Under the pieces are notes generated by a model, which ran no database searches, was not told the origin of the DNA, and worked only from the letters and a program-made list of their open reading frames with translations. Positions 3,362 through 32,393 of a DNA stretch of 36,367 nucleotides are shown in pieces. A program made the translations under genes and the position numbers. Source of the DNA: a virus. The stretch spans positions 1 to 36,367 of IMG/VR virus record IMGVR_UViG_3300028862_000398; one strand, 5' to 3'. How positions within the stretch are numbered: the first letter of the stretch is position 1; every line of letters begins with the position of its first letter.

Positions 3362-5665
3362 CTATTCTTCAGCTAATGGAACTTTTACATACAAAAAATA
3401 TCCGTCGTCGTCGGGCAGGGTAATATCAGTTTGGGCAATGTTCCACGATCGGGTTGGATCATAAGGCAATTCAGCATCTTTCAGCTTCTGAATTTCATAC
3501 CGATCGAGCGTTTTATAATTCGAAACGATCAGCGATCCTGCGCCAATAATAATATCGTTGGCAACGCCTCCCACGTTAGTTTCAACCAATGTCTCTTTTA
3601 GCGAGTAAGGTAAAACTACATCAGGTGCCATCATTCCCGGGTCGAGGCTTGATTCTCTGACAAGCCTGTCGGCCTTAAACTTATCATCTGTCGGATCAAG
3701 CAGTCTATTGCGTAGCTCGTTGGTTGTTTCCTGATCCTTTCGGGTTGCTTCGGTTGTATCTTTCTTCGCATCGCTCAAAGCGCGTTCAATGGCTTCGAGG
3801 CGCATGTCTGTTTTCTTCAGCTTTGGCACCTTCACAACTTCTGAAAGTGTCAGCTCATAAGTGCCTTTATAAACATCGTATACCAGCGAACTAATCCGGA
3901 GCGGGCCGTCAACGCCATGCTCCGGAAATATGAACGGCACACGGTCTCCAGCTTCAAAACCAAAAGGCTGATCCTGGGCTTTCACAAAAGCAGGGTGAAC
4001 CGTTACATTGTATGGGTATTTAGGTATGCAATGCATATCAAGGTCTGTCTGTGCAGCTGCTTCCAATTCAGCTTCCGCAAGAGCCACGTAACTGGTAGGC
4101 TGATCGATATCAATTAGAGTATATTGATTGTCTACAGCAATCGGAAAGTTTGCATTTGGAAATAAATCACCGCGCTCATCCTTAAACGGAATGATGTATA
4201 TTTCTTTGGTATCATTATCGAAGCGGTTTATCTCAAATTGCATTCCGGCCAGATCACCGGTTTTCATCACCACTTTAGCCGAAAGACCGCCAAGTAGGTA
4301 GTCGTTAATATTGAAGTCAAGTGTCGAGTCTGTCAGCTTAAAAATTCCTTCCGGATGAGCGTACTTTTCTTCAACCGTTAATTCGTCCTGAAGCTTTTGA
4401 ACATAGCCAGTAACTATTCCGGTGAAACGAGGAAAAATATCTTCGTAAAATAGAGTTTTGGATTTAACTCCCAAGTCGCCAGCTGCAAAATCTAATCCAT
4501 AGTTTTTCTTCAGCGGGTTATTATCGAACGACAAACGACGGGTTCCATTGCGGTAGCCTGGCTTCAAATTTTTGGTTGATCCAAATGCGAACAGGCAGGT
4601 ATAGAATTCGTCAGCCAGCATTTCACCCGGAGTGATTTCGTACAAACCTTTGCCTTTGCCATATTCAAGAACAATATCTTTGTCATTTGCAATCTGTGCC
4701 CTTACGTTGATATTAAATTCCCACTGTGTTTCATGCAACGATTCAAACTCGTATTCCAGTTTATATTCGGTGCAAAGCCTTCGAAGTACCGACAAACAGT
4801 TTTCGCCTGAAAATTTATGCAACCGGCGTTCAGTAGTATCAATGGTTCCCTTGAAAAATTTACGGGCATAATAGTCTCGTCCGTGATTGTTACAAATCAG
4901 GGTAATAATCTCATCGAAGTTAGCGAAGTACGAAAAGTCTGATTCGCCCAGATCGTTCAGGAAATCAGAATGAGAAAGCCAGTTTCCCATATGATTGGCC
5001 CTGATGTTATAAACAAACTTATTGTTCGAGATCTTCTTAGGTTTAGGCTCCGACTCAAAGTAAAAGCGATCTGGGCTCGATCCGTTTGAACTGATACTTA
5101 TATCATCGAAAAACCGGATATCTAACTTTTGATTTGTTTCGAATGAGAAGGTCGCGTAAAAATCACCCTGCAAGGTTTTTTGAACTTTTAAGTCGCGGGT
5201 TAAAACCGTAGCAATAATATTATTGCTGTATGTTCGTGAAATGTGAAGCTGATAAAAGTCGATATCACCGGCAACAGTTAGGCGAAGGGTAAACATGCCA
5301 ATTTGCAGCGAACTGACGTAAGACGTTTTGCGAGTCATCTGTATGGCCTGCTGAACAGTTACGTGTTCAATTTCGTTGCCGTAAACAGTTGTCAGCGTTC
5401 GTTCACCAGGAGCCACCAGCGCAGCATAAAAAGCAGCTACTTTGGTTTTAAATTCTTCGTACCCGGCTGCTTTTATCCAGCAGTTTAATGATATTTCCCG
5501 ATCCTGGTATTTCACGTCAGCGGCATCCTGCCAATAGTCGCGCCCATTCTCATCGAGCCAGTCGGTTGACTCATCGAAAATTTTAGGCATATCCAGTACT
5601 CCGGATGTTTTTACTACAACAACGCCGTAGTTCTTAAAGTCTATATCGTCAAGTTTCCAGCTCAT
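3362..5665 (-). CDS. Baseplate/tail-tip protein: Dit-like N-terminus plus Tal-like hub
   Basis: This 767-residue protein has an N-terminal ~140 residues (GVVVVKTSGVLDMPK, DREISLNCWIKA, APGERTLTTVYG) resembling siphophage distal tail (Dit) proteins. The following several hundred residues resemble the N-terminal baseplate-hub region of tail-associated (Tal/gp44-like) proteins, including the LSVLRRLCTEYKLEYEFE segment. The C-terminal ~120 residues are charged and probably coiled (ERALSDAKKDTTEATRKDQE). Position between tape measure/119-aa Dit-like gene and the adhesin fits a tail-tip hub connecting tube to receptor-binding protein. It overlaps the upstream gene by 4 bp. No hydrolase motif is obvious. 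Confidence 0.6.
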   Translation of the reverse strand: MSWKLDDIDFKNYGVVVVKTSGVLDMPKIFDESTDWLDENGRDYWQDAADVKYQDREISLNCWIKAAGYEEFKTKVAAFYAALVAPGERTLTTVYGNEIEHVTVQQAIQMTRKTSYVSSLQIGMFTLRLTVAGDIDFYQLHISRTYSNNIIATVLTRDLKVQKTLQGDFYATFSFETNQKLDIRFFDDISISSNGSSPDRFYFESEPKPKKISNNKFVYNIRANHMGNWLSHSDFLNDLGESDFSYFANFDEIITLICNNHGRDYYARKFFKGTIDTTERRLHKFSGENCLSVLRRLCTEYKLEYEFESLHETQWEFNINVRAQIANDKDIVLEYGKGKGLYEITPGEMLADEFYTCLFAFGSTKNLKPGYRNGTRRLSFDNNPLKKNYGLDFAAGDLGVKSKTLFYEDIFPRFTGIVTGYVQKLQDELTVEEKYAHPEGIFKLTDSTLDFNINDYLLGGLSAKVVMKTGDLAGMQFEINRFDNDTKEIYIIPFKDERGDLFPNANFPIAVDNQYTLIDIDQPTSYVALAEAELEAAAQTDLDMHCIPKYPYNVTVHPAFVKAQDQPFGFEAGDRVPFIFPEHGVDGPLRISSLVYDVYKGTYELTLSEVVKVPKLKKTDMRLEAIERALSDAKKDTTEATRKDQETTNELRNRLLDPTDDKFKADRLVRESSLDPGMMAPDVVLPYSLKETLVETNVGGVANDIIIGAGSLIVSNYKTLDRYEIQKLKDAELPYDPTRSWNIAQTDITLPDDDGYFLYVKVPLAEE

Positions 5666-25412: not shown

Positions 25413-25718
25413 TTATGTGAATTTAAACCGTTCGTTTTCTTTGATAATAATTGTTTTGAAAGGGAAGCAGTCTTCAGGAACTTGCATAATTGCATCTATC
25501 AGCCCGGATGCTCCGGTAAATACAATATGCTTTTCGTCATTAATTGATATTTGCAAATGCATACACTTTCCTGATCCAGGCTCTTTGAAAACCTTTGATT
25601 CTACAATCTTGAAATGGTGAACTATAATTTCGCGATCCAAGATTTTAGACATCTTAATTTTATCGCCTTCAAAGGCTTGAGAGGTTACTTTTATATTGAA
25701 TTGACTAAAACTGTTCAT
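25413..25718 (-). CDS. Small beta-rich protein overlapping the RT gene
   Basis: This 101-residue protein overlaps the end of the RT gene by 14 bp. It is rich in alternating strands (DREIIVHHFKIVESKVF, GKCMHLQISINDEKHIVFTG, PFKTIIIKENERFKFT). The pattern could suit a small nucleic-acid-binding barrel, but no motif proves this. Its tight coupling to the RT suggests a role in retrohoming or simply shared expression. It does not resemble the helical Avd accessory factor of classical DGRs. Confidence 0.55.
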   Translation of the reverse strand: MNSFSQFNIKVTSQAFEGDKIKMSKILDREIIVHHFKIVESKVFKEPGSGKCMHLQISINDEKHIVFTGASGLIDAIMQVPEDCFPFKTIIIKENERFKFT

Positions 25719-26664
25719 GTAATAACTTTTTCATTAGGTTTTTGCTGTTGCAGTGTTTGGCCCAACCGTTATAGCTGGCTATCGACTTTGCATTTCTATT
25801 TTTCTTCAGCATTCGGGCAAAATTCTGTTTAATGGTTTTTCGGAGTAGCGTGTGCGTGTGATAAAAGACATAGCCAACGAAATCAATCCCTCGGGCGGAA
25901 ACCGGAAAGACCTGGTAGTTTCCTTTAACTGTCAGCCTCAAATTATCCTTAAGATATGCCCTGATTTCAGCTAATAATTGGTGCAAATAGGGCTTAGAGT
26001 CAGAAAGTATTACCAGATCGTCAGCATAGCGGAAATAGTAATGAACCCGCTTTTCTTCTTTGATCCAGTGGTCAAAATACGTCAGGTAGAAGTTGGCGAA
26101 ATATTGGCTGAGGTAATTTCCAATAGGGAGCCCCGACGTACTGTCTATAATTTCGTCAAGCAGCCAAAGCAGATCATTATCTTTAATCTTCCGGCGCAGC
26201 AATTGTTTTAAAGTGGCATGATCTACGGAAGGATAAAACTTCTTAACATCAAGCTTCAAACAATACCTGGTGTTTTCAACATCATTTAAAGCTTGTTTAA
26301 CTGCTCTTGCAGCGGCGTGAATGCCTTTGCCTTTGATACAACTGTATGAATCAGTTGTAAAAACGGATACAAATACATGCTCCAGAATATTCATGACAGC
26401 GTGATGCAATATCCTGTCTGGAAAATAAGGCAATCGGAATATGATCCGCTCCTTTGGTTCGAAGATTGTAAACGTAGTATATTCGGATGTCCGGTAAGTC
26501 TTATTCATCAGCATATCATGCAATTTCTGAATATTGTCTTCGCGGTTTTTATCGTGAGAAATTACACCTGGTTGTTTTGCCTTTCCTTTCCGGGCTATTG
26601 AGTCTGCCAGTTCAAGGTTTTCAATGCTTATTATTTTACCGTACAAATTATTGATCCGCTTCAT
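25705..26664 (-). CDS. Diversity-generating retroelement reverse transcriptase
   Basis: This 319-residue RT has all core motifs in order: RLPYFPDRILHHAV (motif 1/2 area), LKLDVKKFYPSV (motif A, catalytic Asp139), LPIGNYLSQYFANFYL (180-195) and FRYADDLVIL (YADD at 213-216, catalytic Asp pair), then RLTVKGNYQVFPVSARGIDF and a thumb. The IGNYLSQ motif ([ILV]GxxxSQ) is the signature that separates DGR RTs from group II intron and retron RTs. The enzyme copies the adjacent template-repeat RNA with errors at adenines; the cDNA then replaces the variable repeats. Length is normal for DGR RTs (~300-400). The start at 26664 is 96 bp from the template repeat. Confidence 0.95.
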   Translation of the reverse strand: MKRINNLYGKIISIENLELADSIARKGKAKQPGVISHDKNREDNIQKLHDMLMNKTYRTSEYTTFTIFEPKERIIFRLPYFPDRILHHAVMNILEHVFVSVFTTDSYSCIKGKGIHAAARAVKQALNDVENTRYCLKLDVKKFYPSVDHATLKQLLRRKIKDNDLLWLLDEIIDSTSGLPIGNYLSQYFANFYLTYFDHWIKEEKRVHYYFRYADDLVILSDSKPYLHQLLAEIRAYLKDNLRLTVKGNYQVFPVSARGIDFVGYVFYHTHTLLRKTIKQNFARMLKKNRNAKSIASYNGWAKHCNSKNLMKKLLHEQF

Positions 26665-26887: not shown

Positions 26888-27298
26888 TTATATCAACCAC
26901 GTTTTGTAATCGTCATTCAGCACTTTGAACACGTGCATCGTTTTGTCATCACTGTCCGTGCAAAGGCGCGAACCGACGCCCGAGCCACGAGTAACGTAGT
27001 GCGAAGACGAATTCGAAAAGTCGAACCCCGAACCCGAGGAAAGAACTCTTGCATATGCGAAGTATTTGTCAGTATTTTTTGTGAAGTCTACTTTCTTGCC
27101 TTCGTTTACTGCCGATACTCCAACCATGATCCGGTAAACAGCGATTAAGGGTTCACGAAATTCTTCGGGTAAATTATCCACTCCGGGAAGTTGAGTCGGA
27201 TCAATGTTTCGTGCTTTGCAGAAATCTTCGAATGATTGCATTTGTGTGAAATCAACTTTTTGCTGATCTTCTTTTGGGTTTATTTTTTCCTTTGTCAT
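26888..27298 (-). CDS. DGR-diversified small protein 1 (VR1)
   Basis: This 136-residue protein has a constant N-terminal region (DFTQMQSFEDFCKARNIDPT, GVDNLPEEFREPLIAVYRIM) and contains the variable repeat at residues ~85-114: SSGSGFDFSNSSSHYVTRGS and GVGSRLC. A 22-residue tail (DDKTMHVFKVLNDDYKTWLI) follows, so the VR is not at the very C-terminus as in many DGR targets. No signal peptide, lipobox or membrane helix is visible, so the protein is predicted to be cytosolic. It lies 4 bp downstream of the second target gene and directly upstream of TR. I recall similar SGxGF...VGSRLC proteins in Bacteroidetes phages, without known function. Confidence 0.85.
   Translation of the reverse strand: MTKEKINPKEDQQKVDFTQMQSFEDFCKARNIDPTQLPGVDNLPEEFREPLIAVYRIMVGVSAVNEGKKVDFTKNTDKYFAYARVLSSGSGFDFSNSSSHYVTRGSGVGSRLCTDSDDKTMHVFKVLNDDYKTWLI
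26956..27045 (-). repeat. DGR variable repeat 1 (VR1)
   Basis: This 90-bp copy aligns with the template repeat without gaps. It differs at 16 positions, all adenines in the template. Codon changes include AAT to TCT, AAC to CAC, GAT to GTT, AAT to ACT, two AAC to GGC, AGT to GGT and CAC to CGC. It encodes residues ~85-114 of the 136-residue protein. The conserved 3' part GTCGGTTCGCGCCTTTGC is GC-rich and is the likely initiation-of-mutagenic-homing side. Confidence 0.95.
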
Positions 27299-27302
27299 GA
27301 TT

Positions 27303-27761
27303 TTAATTTTTGTTTGTTATCAATAATTTAAATAGTGGTAAGAATGTTTTTCCGATGAAATCTGACTTTTCCTGAGTCTCCGCGCAAAGGCGCGAACCGA
27401 CGTTCGAGCAACGATCATCGTAGTGCGAATACGAACACGAAAAGTCGAACCCCGAACCCGAGGAAAGAAAAACTTGCTCCCATTTCCGTTGGTTAGGATT
27501 TGGAAGATCAGCTATCCATTCGCCATTCACTGTTTTTGTGATATGGCATAATTGCTTAAAGGCAACAATATGAGGGCGGTCGGTAGAGTAAATAATGTCA
27601 TCTTCATCAACTGGACGCATTTCAACTGCATCCTCGTAGGTTTCGATGTCGCGCCAGTCAGTTTTGAAGCTTTTCTCACCGAATTCTTCAGCTAATTCCT
27701 TCTTAAACCAATCAGGAGAAAGAGGATATATCTTTTTTGCTTTTTGAAGTGTCAGTTCCAT
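27303..27761 (-). CDS. DGR-diversified small protein 2 (VR2)
   Basis: This 152-residue protein is a paralogue of the next gene in the VR and tail. The N-terminal ~95 residues (TLQKAKKIYPLSPDWFKKEL, IETYEDAVEMRPVDEDDIIY) differ from protein 1 and resemble a small domain with acidic and aromatic residues. The VR covers residues ~98-127: SSGSGFDFSCSYSHYDDRCS and NVGSRLC; the tail EKSDFIGKTFLPLFKLLI follows. It has no export signal. It begins just downstream of DUF4494 and ends 4 bp before protein 1, so both are made from the early operon together with RT. The biochemical function is not recognised. Confidence 0.85.
   Translation of the reverse strand: MELTLQKAKKIYPLSPDWFKKELAEEFGEKSFKTDWRDIETYEDAVEMRPVDEDDIIYSTDRPHIVAFKQLCHITKTVNGEWIADLPNPNQRKWEQVFLSSGSGFDFSCSYSHYDDRCSNVGSRLCAETQEKSDFIGKTFLPLFKLLITNKN
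27380..27469 (-). repeat. DGR variable repeat 2 (VR2)
   Basis: This 90-bp copy is gap-free against the template and differs at 15 positions, all template adenines. Changes include AAT to TGT, AAT to TAT, AAC to CAC, AAT to GAT, AAC to TGC, AGT to GGT and CAC to CGC; one AAC is unchanged. Several substitutions are different from those in VR1, so the two repeats were mutagenised independently. Confidence 0.95.
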
Positions 27762-27765
27762 ACTA

Positions 27766-28242
27766 TTATTTAACGATTGGTTTCAGGTTGCTCGGAATTT
27801 GTTTGTTTACAGTATCCTCGAAGTATGGAAACACATCGCAAATATTGCTGACTGCCAGAGAAGTAATTGTGAACGGTACCATGATATAGCTTAATCCATC
27901 TTCAAGGCGTTTTAAAGCCTGTTTAATGTCATCGGCAGCAATCAAAAATTGATTACTAATTTTCTTTTCTTTCCCTGCTTTTTCGTCGATGGTAACAATT
28001 GAGATTTTACCAACAAACCACCATTCTCCAACTTCGTGAGGGAAAATCTCAACGATGTTCGTTTGAGTAATTTGTTTTACCACGAATTTACCGCGAACCA
28101 TAGTTGCCAGCTGGGAAATAATACGAGCTTCAGCATCGGTATAAGTTACCGCATCGATCAGGTAAGCTTCGCTAACTTTGCGTTCACGTCCGTCATCGTC
28201 AATTTTAACGTACTGAACTACACATTTGAACCATTTTTGCAT
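27766..28242 (-). CDS. DUF4494 family protein
   Basis: This 158-residue protein matches DUF4494 as I recall it: MQKWFKCVVQYVKIDDDGRE at the start, VSEAYLIDAVTYTDAEARII, then a second half GEWWFVGKISIVTIDEKAGK and KISNQFLIAADDIKQALKRL. The two halves look like a tandem duplication of a ~70-residue alpha/beta unit (W-F-C/G-K, then x-x-x-L-I-D/A-A, then a helix). The family is found mainly in Bacteroidetes phages and mobile elements; its function is not known. It is directly upstream of the two diversified proteins. Confidence 0.75.
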   Translation of the reverse strand: MQKWFKCVVQYVKIDDDGRERKVSEAYLIDAVTYTDAEARIISQLATMVRGKFVVKQITQTNIVEIFPHEVGEWWFVGKISIVTIDEKAGKEKKISNQFLIAADDIKQALKRLEDGLSYIMVPFTITSLAVSNICDVFPYFEDTVNKQIPSNLKPIVK

Positions 28243-28259
28243 AATAGATTTGTTTGTTG

Positions 28260-28530
28260 TTTCTGGCTTATGCCATTGTTCAGGGTAAGGTTTCGAACCT
28301 ATAAATACTCCCCAATGAGTTACCCCGCTTCCACCTTCTAATTATGAAGGATTAAGACTTACCTTGCAGTCTAACCGTGTTCCCTTTTCTCCAGAGACCA
28401 ATATCACCCGATTAAAGTCTGGGTACACCGACCTCCCTCGAAAACCTTTAGTGCAGTTCCTCACGAGGGAAGTTATTGTTACTGCACGATCCTGATTAAT
28501 CAGGCTTTTCTACCGGCATACACCGGCCTT
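28260..28530 (-). ncRNA. Candidate structured RNA / leader (hairpin-dense gap)
   Basis: The 306-bp gap between DUF3164 and DUF4494 genes has no convincing ORF but is packed with short inverted repeats: GGCttatGCC (28265-28274), AGGTTtcgAACCT (28288-28300), CCTTC-7-GAAGG (28334-28350), AGACT-8-AGTCT (28355-28372), GTGCAGT-23-ACTGCAC (28451-28487), CCTGATTAATCAGG (28491-28504) and CCGG-6-CCGG (28513-28526). CCCTCG (28435-28440) can also pair with CGAGGG (28464-28469), overlapping the GTGCAGT loop. On the minus strand it would be the 5' leader of the DUF4494-DGR block. No tRNA, known riboswitch or intron core is recognised. Confidence 0.45.
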
Positions 28531-28548
28531 CCTATTGGTGGGTTTGTC

Positions 28549-29223
28549 TTAAAGCCTGTTAAAGCTTGGTTCCAGCTTGGTCCATACTCCCATATGGTTC
28601 TTTTGCCAGAAATAGAAGTTCGTGGCAGTTGTTTCAACCAGGTGCGATTCTTTGAACAAGTTCATAATTGCTGAGTATTCAGTATTATTGAACTTTTCCT
28701 CCAAATCGTACAGGTTCGAAATCTGTTTATAATCCAGATCGCCGTATTTATTACGTTCGAGCATAGTCATAGCCAGCTGGTACATCGGATCGTCGGTGCC
28801 TTTTGGTTTTAGGGCAATCCAAGCCTGAAGGAATTCAATCAGACGGGCGGCGGCCACATCGGCGCGTTCGTCAAACTTCTTAACCTTATTGGTTTTCACT
28901 TCAATCTTGAAGTTCTTTTCTTTGAGCGTATAACTCAGTTGGTTATCGAAACGAAGCTCACCGTATTCGGCCATAATACCCTTAAAGGCTTCAGTTTCTT
29001 CGCTCACGTAGGCAAATAAGCCCATAACTTCAGATACCACCTGTCGAACCTTCTGTTCAATCCGGAGAACGATATCGGCACGAATGCCCTCGTAAGCGGC
29101 GCGTTTATTAACTCTTTTGTCGTGCTCTTCTTGCTGCTTTTGTTTCAATAAAACTTCCAGATCGGCAGCCGATACTTGTGAAAGATCAATCGTTTGTTTT
29201 TTTTCTTGAGTTGCAGTTTCCAT
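28549..29223 (-). CDS. DUF3164 family protein
   Basis: This 224-residue protein has the typical features of DUF3164, a family of Mu-like phage early regions: a helical N-terminus (LSQVSAADLEVLLKQKQQEE), a middle that begins GIRADIVLRIEQKVRQVVSE, the FDNQLSYTLKEKNFKIEVKT strand pair, and a C-terminal region with EFLQAWIALKPKGTDDPMYQ. The function is unknown; the gene travels with Mu GemA-type genes upstream of it here. It is part of the leftward early operon, 24 bp after the GemA-like gene. Confidence 0.8.
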   Translation of the reverse strand: METATQEKKQTIDLSQVSAADLEVLLKQKQQEEHDKRVNKRAAYEGIRADIVLRIEQKVRQVVSEVMGLFAYVSEETEAFKGIMAEYGELRFDNQLSYTLKEKNFKIEVKTNKVKKFDERADVAAARLIEFLQAWIALKPKGTDDPMYQLAMTMLERNKYGDLDYKQISNLYDLEEKFNNTEYSAIMNLFKESHLVETTATNFYFWQKNHMGVWTKLEPSFNRL

Positions 29224-31054: not shown

Positions 31055-31479
31055 AGTGCTAGGGTTAGTTGTTGTTTTTGTTTTTTGTTAGGGTCTGTCA
31101 TTCGCGGCCAAAATGGATAGGTAGTTTTTAGCCAAACTTCATGGTCATCTCTCCAAACGGCATCGCGCATATTGAGCCACCACGAAAAGCATCGTATACC
31201 GCGACAAAGCCACTCCCATTCATATATTGCCCCGTATTCTCTTCCACAACACATACAAACTCTTTTCTGAGTTCCTATTTCTTCATAATGATCGATTAAC
31301 CAAAAAGTACCCATGTCAGGAATTGCACGTTTATGATAGTCTCTCATTGATTCAATTCGTTGGTCGTTTCGACTATGCCACCATTCACGTTCTTCAGGAG
31401 TTGTTTTAATCTTATAAGTATCAATAGTGCTTATGTCTCGAAATCCCGTTGCGGCAGCTATATATTTAAATTCGCTCAT
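31051..31479 (-). CDS. Cys/Trp-rich early protein with zinc-finger-like cluster
   Basis: This 142-residue protein has a Cys cluster CMCCGREYG (three Cys) followed by ECLC-like spacing in WLCRGIRCFSWWLNMRDAVW; together these can bind zinc. It is unusually rich in Trp. The N-terminus (YIAAATGFRDISTIDTYKIK) shows no motif. It overlaps the Mu B-like gene by 4 bp (ATGA), so it is co-translated. The family is not recognised. Confidence 0.5.
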   Translation of the reverse strand: MSEFKYIAAATGFRDISTIDTYKIKTTPEEREWWHSRNDQRIESMRDYHKRAIPDMGTFWLIDHYEEIGTQKRVCMCCGREYGAIYEWEWLCRGIRCFSWWLNMRDAVWRDDHEVWLKTTYPFWPRMTDPNKKQKQQLTLAL

Positions 31480-32393
31480 GCTGCGTCCTCCTGATTTGAA
31501 AGTAAAATCAACAACGATTCGGCACGACGTAGACCTCCGATATGGCCGTTACTATCGTTCGCCAGGCATTTATTCACAATGGTGTTCAGTAAGTCAGCCG
31601 GGCAATTATTAGCCATCAAAACGTCAGTAATTAGTTTACGGTAAAAGTCTATCCGGTCTTGTCTTCCTGTTGGAACGATGTTCGAAAACTTACCTGAGAA
31701 TCGTGAGAATATTTCAGCGAAACCCACCTTTTTAGCGGTTATTCCGGCCTCAATTTTTTTGCGTAATCCATCGGCACCGGTAATGTACCAGCCACAATAA
31801 TTTTCGGTCGAGTTCCACAGTTCCTTCAATTCCAAAAAGGCTTCGTATTCCAGGTCACCGGCTTCGTCAATAATTACAACCGGCTTACTCAGGCTTTTTA
31901 GGTAAAATTTCAGGGTTTCTTTAACTTCAATATATCGGCCCTTACTTTCGGCTCCAACGGTTTTGGCGAGTAGGCGAATAAATGCTTGTTTCGTTTTAGC
32001 CTGACTGGCATCCACATAAAAACAGTTCTTTATCGTTCGGCTTAAAACTTTGCAGGTATGTGTTTTTCCGATTTCGCAATCGTCAACAAACATCATCGAT
32101 TTGGCGTGAGCCTTACAGAATAAAACATCGTCTTCAATCGCCTGAGTAACATCTGTCCGGGCAGTAACCCATTTTCTGTTTTCAACAGTTAATCCCAATT
32201 CATGAGCAATCATAATCCACTGGGTAGTTCTCAGCAGTCCCATGTGTTCGCCGTTGTTCAGGCGCGAGAAAACCGCTGACGATATGCCAAATGTTTTGGC
32301 GAACGATGCATTACTACCTTCGTAAAGTTTACGGCGATCATGTAATGCTTCGATAATTTTTAGTTTGAATTCGGTAGTAAGGGTAATAGCCAT
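31476..32393 (-). CDS. Mu B-like transposition ATPase
   Basis: This 305-residue protein is the AAA+ target-selection partner of transposase. Residues 1-~70 form a CI-like helix-turn-helix (NASFAKTFGISSAVFSRLNN), as in Mu B. The ATPase core has a Walker A variant FVDDCEIGKTHT (102-113; Gly-Lys-Thr kept, first Gly replaced by Asp), Walker B PVVIIDEAGDL (171-181, Asp176/Glu177), and a sensor region with ENYCGWYITGADGLRKKI. Mu B binds DNA in filaments and directs transposase to targets away from its own ends (target immunity). It is directly downstream of transposase with an 18-bp gap. Confidence 0.9.
   Translation of the reverse strand: MAITLTTEFKLKIIEALHDRRKLYEGSNASFAKTFGISSAVFSRLNNGEHMGLLRTTQWIMIAHELGLTVENRKWVTARTDVTQAIEDDVLFCKAHAKSMMFVDDCEIGKTHTCKVLSRTIKNCFYVDASQAKTKQAFIRLLAKTVGAESKGRYIEVKETLKFYLKSLSKPVVIIDEAGDLEYEAFLELKELWNSTENYCGWYITGADGLRKKIEAGITAKKVGFAEIFSRFSGKFSNIVPTGRQDRIDFYRKLITDVLMANNCPADLLNTIVNKCLANDSNGHIGGLRRAESLLILLSNQEDAA

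What the first reader, a model, noticed from the sequence alone, without database searches (positions are those of the whole stretch)
28260..28530. Hairpin-dense non-coding block upstream of the DUF4494-DGR cassette
At least seven inverted repeats with 3-7-bp arms, including a perfect 14-bp palindrome CCTGATTAATCAGG, are packed into ~270 bp with no ORF. The block lies in the transcript leading into DUF4494 and the DGR. Density and distinct loops suggest a structured RNA or a long regulatory leader rather than a single terminator.
Basis: partly seen in the sequence, partly recalled or inferred. Interest (0 to 1): 0.7.

Follow-up and report, generated by a model that had tools for sequence, protein, structure and literature searches.

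The report
Pseudoknotted phage RNA beside tRNA-like fold
The gap between two phage genes encodes, on the minus strand, a chain of conserved folded RNA pieces, one of which is a new pseudoknotted RNA that recurs in unrelated phages next to tRNA genes, probably a small phage RNA cut out by the host's tRNA-processing enzymes.

Summary
The block (28243-28548, minus strand) is a structured non-coding RNA. Hairpin density alone is not above chance; the proof is comparative. It is modular: (1) two hairpins plus an H-type pseudoknot, both stems kept through double changes; (2) an ~85-nt element, here called M2 (28347-28434): pseudoknot, two hairpins and an almost invariant core; (3) a tRNA-like fold that ranges, across relatives, from complete cloverleaf through this window's anticodon-less form to a bare 11-bp hairpin; (4) a small covarying hairpin and an A-rich leader before the DUF4494 start. 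M2 has significant covariation (0/500 shuffles), no protein-coding signature and no Rfam 15 match. It occurs once per genome in ~20 distinct phage contigs, usually with a tRNA starting 14-19 nt downstream; elsewhere it is followed by an intrinsic terminator or directly by an ORF. Flanking protein genes vary, so it is not a dedicated DUF4494 or DGR leader. Best model: a phage small RNA excised from its transcript by tRNA-type processing (RNase P/RNase Z), with the degenerate tRNA kept as a cutting signal, as phages P1/P7 release C4 RNA. Structure and context are shown; excision and trans-acting function are inferred. Its target is unknown.

The parts
28513..28526 (-). Module 1, hairpin CCGG-UGUAUG-CCGG
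   Evidence: Present in the 4 sequences that carry module 1; coordinates
28491..28504 (-).
28434..28487 (-). Module 1, H-type pseudoknot: GTGCAG (28482-28487)/CTGCAC (28451-28456) and TCCCTCG (28464-28470)/CGAGGGA (28434-28440)
   Evidence: Both stems fully paired in 4 of 4 sequences; 4 pairs changed on both sides among them; coordinates
28347..28434 (-). Module M2, new RNA motif: H-type pseudoknot, hairpins P2 and P3, near-invariant core UAUUGGUCUCUGRAGAAAAGGGAACACGG
   Evidence: R1 hit 96.9 bits (the window is in the model's alignment); pair counts on 22 sequences; 1 core match in window, 0 expected
28417..28432 (-). M2 stem P1 GUC/GAC; its loop GUACCC (28421-28426) pairs with GGGUGA (28404-28409) to form the pseudoknot
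   Evidence: Outer P1 pair is CG, AU, GC or UA in different phages; pseudoknot pairs change on both sides in L053 and L054
28381..28397 (-). M2 hairpin P2 UCUCU/AGGGA, loop GGAGAAA
   Evidence: Double change UUCCU/AGGAA in L067; UCUCU/AGAGA in L074
28355..28372 (-). M2 hairpin P3 AGACU/AGUCU, loop GCAAGGUA
   Evidence: Two pairs with 6 and 12 double-change cells
28334..28350 (-). P4 hairpin CCUUC-AUAAUUA-GAAGG between M2 and the tRNA-like fold; in most other phages its loop is GAAAGA
28281..28327 (-). tRNA-like fold without anticodon arm: acceptor CGGGGUA (28321-28327)/UACCCUG (28281-28287), D arm 28307-28320, T arm AGG-UUCGAAA-CCU (28288-28300)
   Evidence: 7/7 and 3/3 pairs; complete tRNA at the same place in L003, L006, L009 (L009 36.3 bits to RF00005)
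28264..28275 (-). Module 4 hairpin UGGC-AUAA-GCCA just after the tRNA-like 3' end (N-CAAU)
   Evidence: Replaced by UCCCGA/UCGGGA or UGACA/UGUCA in relatives, pairing kept
28243..28263 (-). A-rich unstructured leader GAAACAACAAACAAATCTATT up to the DUF4494 ATG

Best explanation
The block is a non-coding RNA unit inserted between DUF3164 and DUF4494 in the minus-strand operon of a Mu-like Bacteroidota phage. Its core, M2, is a compact pseudoknotted phage small RNA. In most phages M2 and a short 3' hairpin (P4) abut a tRNA, so RNase P cleavage at the tRNA 5' end would free the 3' end of the small RNA; in others an intrinsic terminator makes that end. In this Mu-like group the tRNA has decayed as a tRNA but is kept as an acceptor/T-arm helix, which would act as a cutting signal: RNase P cuts 5' of it, releasing the upstream RNA (modules 1 and M2), and RNase Z or another nuclease cuts at N-CAAU, giving the DUF4494 mRNA a 5' end protected by the module 4 hairpin. 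Shown: structures, covariation, modularity, tRNA adjacency, independence from the downstream gene. Inferred: cleavage, a stable small RNA, a trans-acting function. The target is unknown; near-invariance of the unpaired core across unrelated phages suggests a conserved host protein or RNA rather than variable mRNAs.
For: Covariation of M2 (92.5% of cells paired, 7 pairs with double changes, score 0.242 against 0.093 shuffled, 0 of 500; slid controls 0.02-0.10). Model R1 finds distant members that were not used to build it (G019 64 bits, L074 58 bits). Non-coding: 9 synonymous of 36 codon variants, as expected without selection, plus an in-frame stop and frame-shifting indels. One copy per record in 15 of 15 carriers among 20 records searched. 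tRNA start 14-19 nt after M2 in 7 of 8 software-called cases. M2 begins directly after the CCA of a tRNA-Met in L067. The 3' end is an intrinsic terminator formed by P4 in L046; terminator stems with T runs follow in L052 and L068 by reading. Graded tRNA decay with the helix retained, including an 11/11-bp hairpin in L005, L007 and L051. Covarying module 4. Downstream genes differ: DUF4494, an HNH protein (L068), an exonuclease (L048), others. Precedent: RNase P cuts phage C4 and M3 RNAs and polycistronic mRNAs (PMC11143913, PMC5320573).
Against: No transcript or cleavage data exist for any carrier. The window's tRNA-like T stem is only 3 bp, and no CCA is encoded (N-CAAU), which would weaken RNase P recognition. 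In L048, L057 and L062 M2 leads straight into an ORF, as a cis leader would. Promoter motifs near a standalone copy are not above chance, and the terminators of L052 and L068 were read by eye, not found by the scan.
Confidence: 0.5

Rival explanations
1. Cis-acting 5' leader: the folded block controls translation or transcription of the downstream gene (DUF4494), as a riboswitch, antiterminator or attenuator.
For: It lies directly before DUF4494 in most Mu-like relatives; in L048, L057 and L062 M2-P4 directly precedes an exonuclease-type ORF; a hairpin and A-rich leader adjoin the ATG.
Against: The downstream gene varies (DUF4494, HNH, exonuclease, tRNA, terminator). In L046, L052 and L068 a terminator follows M2 closely. 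In G019 M2 and DUF4494 lie about 6 kb apart on the contig. L019 and L022 have DUF3164 and DUF4494 7-8 nt apart, without the block.
Confidence: 0.2
2. tRNA 5'-leader element: M2 only assists folding or processing of the phage tRNA beside it, in cis, perhaps as a recruiting site for RNase P or as an unrecognised ribozyme.
For: Near-constant 14-19 nt spacing to the tRNA; the P4-type hairpin also precedes the tRNA-like fold without M2 in L031 and L036.
Against: Copies followed by a terminator and no tRNA (L046, L052, L060, L068); retained where the tRNA has decayed (window, L004, L008) or become a plain hairpin (L005, L007).
Confidence: 0.2
3. Evolutionary debris: remnants of a tRNA array passing through a Mu-like phage, with no present function.
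For: The tRNA part is visibly degenerate in the window and in L004, L005, L007 and L008.
Against: Module 1, M2, the replacement hairpin and module 4 all keep pairing through double changes, and the M2 core is nearly invariant across unrelated phages; debris would not.
Confidence: 0.06

Closest known systems
C4 antisense RNA of phages P1/P7 (RNase P-processed phage small RNA; PMC5320573, PMC11143913)
   Same: Structured phage RNA that lies in a longer phage transcript and is matured by host RNase P; compact, multi-stem (processing of M2 is inferred only).
   Different: C4 has three stem-loops with antisense loops and is cut at the 5' end of its own P1 stem; M2 has a pseudoknot and an invariant core, and the presumed cut is at its 3' side, at a separate tRNA or tRNA-like fold. 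No C4 match in Rfam scans.
Theta ribozymes (HDV-like, tRNA-adjacent, gut phages; PMC10879173)
   Same: Phage-encoded, pseudoknotted, next to phage tRNAs, some of them suppressor tRNAs (L009 has anticodon UUA).
   Different: Theta ribozymes lie 3' of the tRNA with a nested double pseudoknot; M2 lies 5' of the tRNA in most carriers, and its covariation-supported stems (P1, pseudoknot, P2, P3) do not give that order.
GOLLD and ROOL RNAs (PMC12286853)
   Same: Structured non-coding RNAs found in phages, often near tRNAs (tRNA link from own knowledge).
   Different: Several hundred nt with many helices (own knowledge); M2 is about 85 nt and matches no Rfam 15 model.
t-elements / tRNA punctuation of organelle transcripts
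   Same: tRNA-like folds kept as RNase P / RNase Z cutting signals inside longer transcripts (own knowledge).
   Different: Known from mitochondria; here proposed, untested, for phage mRNA.

Membership tests
tRNA (RF00005) | Cloverleaf with acceptor, D, anticodon and T arms | tested here: not met
   The window's fold lacks the anticodon arm; no ARAGORN or Rfam hit. Met in relative L009 (36.3 bits) and by ARAGORN in L003 and L006.
Any Rfam 15 family, including riboswitches and known ribozymes | Match at or above gathering score, or E up to 5 on the block | tested here: not met
   none in the window or block
Theta / HDV-like ribozyme | Nested double pseudoknot with cleavage site at its 5' end, 3' of a tRNA | tested here: not met
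   Stem order is a simple H-type pseudoknot followed by hairpins; no dedicated HDV descriptor was run
Theta / HDV-like ribozyme | Self-cleavage in Mg2+ | not testable with these tools
   Needs an in vitro assay
C4 antisense RNA | Match to the C4 covariance model in Rfam | tested here: not met
   No match
C4-like RNase P-processed phage small RNA (works like) | RNase P cleavage releasing the RNA | not testable with these tools
   Acceptor/T-arm helix present; cleavage unknown
tmRNA / permuted tmRNA | tRNA-like domain plus tag ORF | tested here: not met
   No tmRNA in the window; but tmRNAs lie beside M2 in L050 and G019
M2 motif (this work) | Pseudoknot, P2, P3 and core, as model R1 | tested here: met
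   Window 28347-28434, 96.9 bits; the window sequence is one of those the model was built from

The most novel reading that the evidence does not exclude
M2 is a previously undescribed trans-acting phage RNA whose invariant core binds a conserved host factor (for example an RNA-processing, translation or defence component); diverse Bacteroidota phages carry one copy and free it with host tRNA-processing enzymes, and the Mu-like group has turned a tRNA into a bare cutting signal for it.
Probability: 0.35. Interest if true: 0.8.

Novelty: new variant of a known kind. Interest (0 to 1): 0.6.

Why it matters
It defines a new recurrent RNA motif shared by unrelated phages, mapped well enough (pseudoknot, core, ends) to be tested at once. 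It also offers a traceable series from complete tRNA to 11-bp hairpin that suggests phages use tRNA processing to punctuate mRNA. If M2 acts in trans it would be a small RNA that many Bacteroidota phages rely on, in hosts where phage RNA biology is little known.

Tried and rejected
Inverted-repeat density as evidence: not above chance. Terminator reading of the palindrome: only a weak plus-strand match, wrong strand for these genes. Decayed coding gene or conserved small peptide: one frame is open through M2 in several phages, but codon variants are 25% synonymous against 26% expected without selection, with an in-frame TAG and frame-shifting indels. Rfam families: none. M2 as a cellular RNA: 1 of 395 Bacteroidota and 1 of 140 same-family genomes, the same one; one exact core match in 84,980 species genomes. 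Named phages and plasmids: no M2 found; the weak phage hits inspected are the P4 hairpin only. Base pairing of M2 to host 16S/23S rRNA: nothing above shuffles. One viral scan was lost to a mis-spaced pattern. Module 1 elsewhere: only the four known contigs.

Full report
WHERE IT IS. The window is a 36.4-kb IMG/VR virus record. Minus-strand genes read from a 682-aa ORF with no Pfam match and a MuB-like transposition ATPase (31476-32393, phrog_296) through DUF3164 (28549-29223), the block (28243-28548), DUF4494 (27766-28242) and two phrog_11581 proteins to a reverse transcriptase of DGR type (25705-26664). It resembles transposable Bacteroides phages at DUF3164. The block is on the transcribed minus strand.

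THE OBSERVATION. The hairpins and the palindrome are real, but their density is ordinary for this genome and the folding z-score is only -2.3. The finding could not be settled from this sequence alone.

RELATIVES. DUF3164 and DUF4494 searches of viral contigs gave 28 and 14 loci. Where both genes are close relatives they are separated by 179-327 non-coding nt; in more distant L019 and L022 they are 7-8 nt apart, so the block is an insertion, not an obligatory part. The gaps are modular: module 1 in the window, L003, L006, L009; M2 in the window, L004, L005, L007, L008, L009, L032; a tRNA-like fold or a replacement hairpin in all of these; module 4 before the start codon in all of these.

MODULE M2. 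A 25-nt core pattern found 20 viral loci and two looser patterns eight more (L067-L074), many on unrelated contigs. One exact match exists among 84,980 bacterial and archaeal species genomes, and the covariance model R1 hit 1 of 395 Bacteroidota genomes: it behaves as a phage RNA. Pair counts on 22 distinct sequences support a 3-bp stem (outer pair CG, AU, GC or UA in different phages), a 6-bp pseudoknot GUACCC/GGGUGC (AUCCCC/GGGGGU in L054, UGCCC/GGGCA in L053), hairpin P2 (UCUCU/AGGGA; UUCCU/AGGAA in L067) and hairpin P3. RNAalifold, which cannot draw pseudoknots, offers a competing long hairpin that uses the same pseudoknot pairs; the four-way variation at the outer P1 pair favours the pseudoknot, or an alternation between the two. 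L074, not used in the model, has a longer P1 (AAGUG/CACUU) and another pseudoknot (ACCGC/GCGGU) around the same core.

NOT CODING. One frame is open through M2 in several phages, so this was tested: 9 of 36 codon variants are synonymous (25%; 26% expected without selection), L067 has an in-frame TAG, and L058, L068 and the window group have indels that shift the frame.

CONTEXT OF M2. In 7 of 8 cases with a software-called tRNA downstream, the tRNA starts 14-19 nt after M2, the gap usually being filled by the P4 hairpin; L050, L059 and L069 look the same by eye. In L067 M2 starts directly after the CCA of a tRNA-Met. tmRNAs lie just upstream in L050 and G019. Without a tRNA, M2 is followed by an intrinsic terminator formed by P4 itself (L046), by longer-loop terminators read by eye (L052, L060, L068; the scan, limited to loops of 3-8, does not list them), or by an ORF (L048, L057, L062). 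Each of the 15 carriers among 20 records has one copy. Neighbouring proteins differ: DUF4494, HNH, exonuclease, terminase region, replication region.

THE tRNA-LIKE PART. At one syntenic place in the Mu-like group: ARAGORN calls tRNA-Asn (L003), tRNA-Lys (L006) and a UUA-anticodon tRNA (L009, 36.3 bits to RF00005); L031, L032 and L037 keep acceptor and T arm; the window keeps acceptor (7/7 pairs), D arm and a short T arm but no anticodon arm; L004 and L008 keep acceptor and T arm only; L005, L007 and L051 have an 11-bp hairpin with double changes. A complete acceptor/T-arm stack is 12 bp, the part RNase P recognises (established knowledge). The 3' end is N-CAAU, then module 4, whose stem is rewritten three ways with pairing kept. 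L023, another DUF3164 phage, has a 7+5-bp acceptor/T-arm fold just before a different ORF (by reading).

HOW IT MOST LIKELY WORKS. M2, with module 1 where present, is read as a small RNA freed from the mRNA by tRNA-type cleavage at the tRNA or tRNA-like fold, or by a terminator in other phages. Host RNase P is known to process phage C4 and M3 RNAs and polycistronic mRNAs (PMC11143913; C4 also PMC5320573). No cleavage data exist here. What M2 does afterwards is unknown; no pairing to rRNA was found.

NOVELTY. No Rfam 15 match; no M2 in the phage and plasmid records searched; no paper found in the open library that describes it, though most subscription papers are not held. The kind of thing (structured phage RNA near tRNAs) is known; this family and the decayed-tRNA arrangement appear new.

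Noticed in passing
L090:1453-2116 (Mahlunavirus cr128_1, MT774392): An unannotated tmRNA-like sequence read by eye (5' domain, tag GNTYRAAA*) followed by a group I intron match (RF00028, 86 bits); it holds the same 19-nt hairpin GACTGATGGAAAGACATCA that ends M2 in L047, L059 and L061.
   Followed up: partly
L086:723-978 (phage record G019): A permuted tmRNA (RF04321, 56 bits) in a phage, directly upstream of M2 and a tRNA-Met.
   Followed up: partly
L089:1500-1530 (Flavobacterium phage elemoA 7-9A): The P4 hairpin GATGGAAAGACATC followed by eight T, an apparent intrinsic terminator of an unannotated RNA after a tRNA; the 19-nt match recurs in 68 Flavobacterium phage records.
   Followed up: partly
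L063:10736-10878; L047:7919-8058; L067:5667-5768; L070:1870-1979: tRNAs following M2 are unusually long (102-143 nt in all), with inserted sequence; L061 and L069 have tRNAs with predicted 4-letter anticodons (ctag, ttga).
   Followed up: no
L009:3861-3933: tRNA with anticodon UUA, of ochre-suppressor type, in a Mu-like phage.
   Followed up: no
L023, about 440-530 nt after the DUF3164 stop (near 4116): Acceptor/T-arm minihelix (CTCCCGG...GCGGGTTCGATTCCCGC...CCGGGAG) directly before an ORF start in another DUF3164 phage, like the decayed tRNA in the window.
   Followed up: partly
window 27000-27050 and 27360-27475: Near-identical segments (around gaaaagtcgaaccccgaacccgaggaaagaa) at the ends of two adjacent ORFs upstream of the reverse transcriptase, probably DGR variable or template repeats.
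   Followed up: no
L037:5264-5342, L008:5859-5937, L006:5981-6063: Sub-threshold matches to reverse-transcriptase-associated RNAs RT-17 and RT-14 in relatives.
   Followed up: no
L018, about 480-600 nt after the DUF3164 stop: Another intergenic segment that looks folded (AGGGCGAGATTGCC...GGTCTCGCCCT) between phage genes.
   Followed up: no
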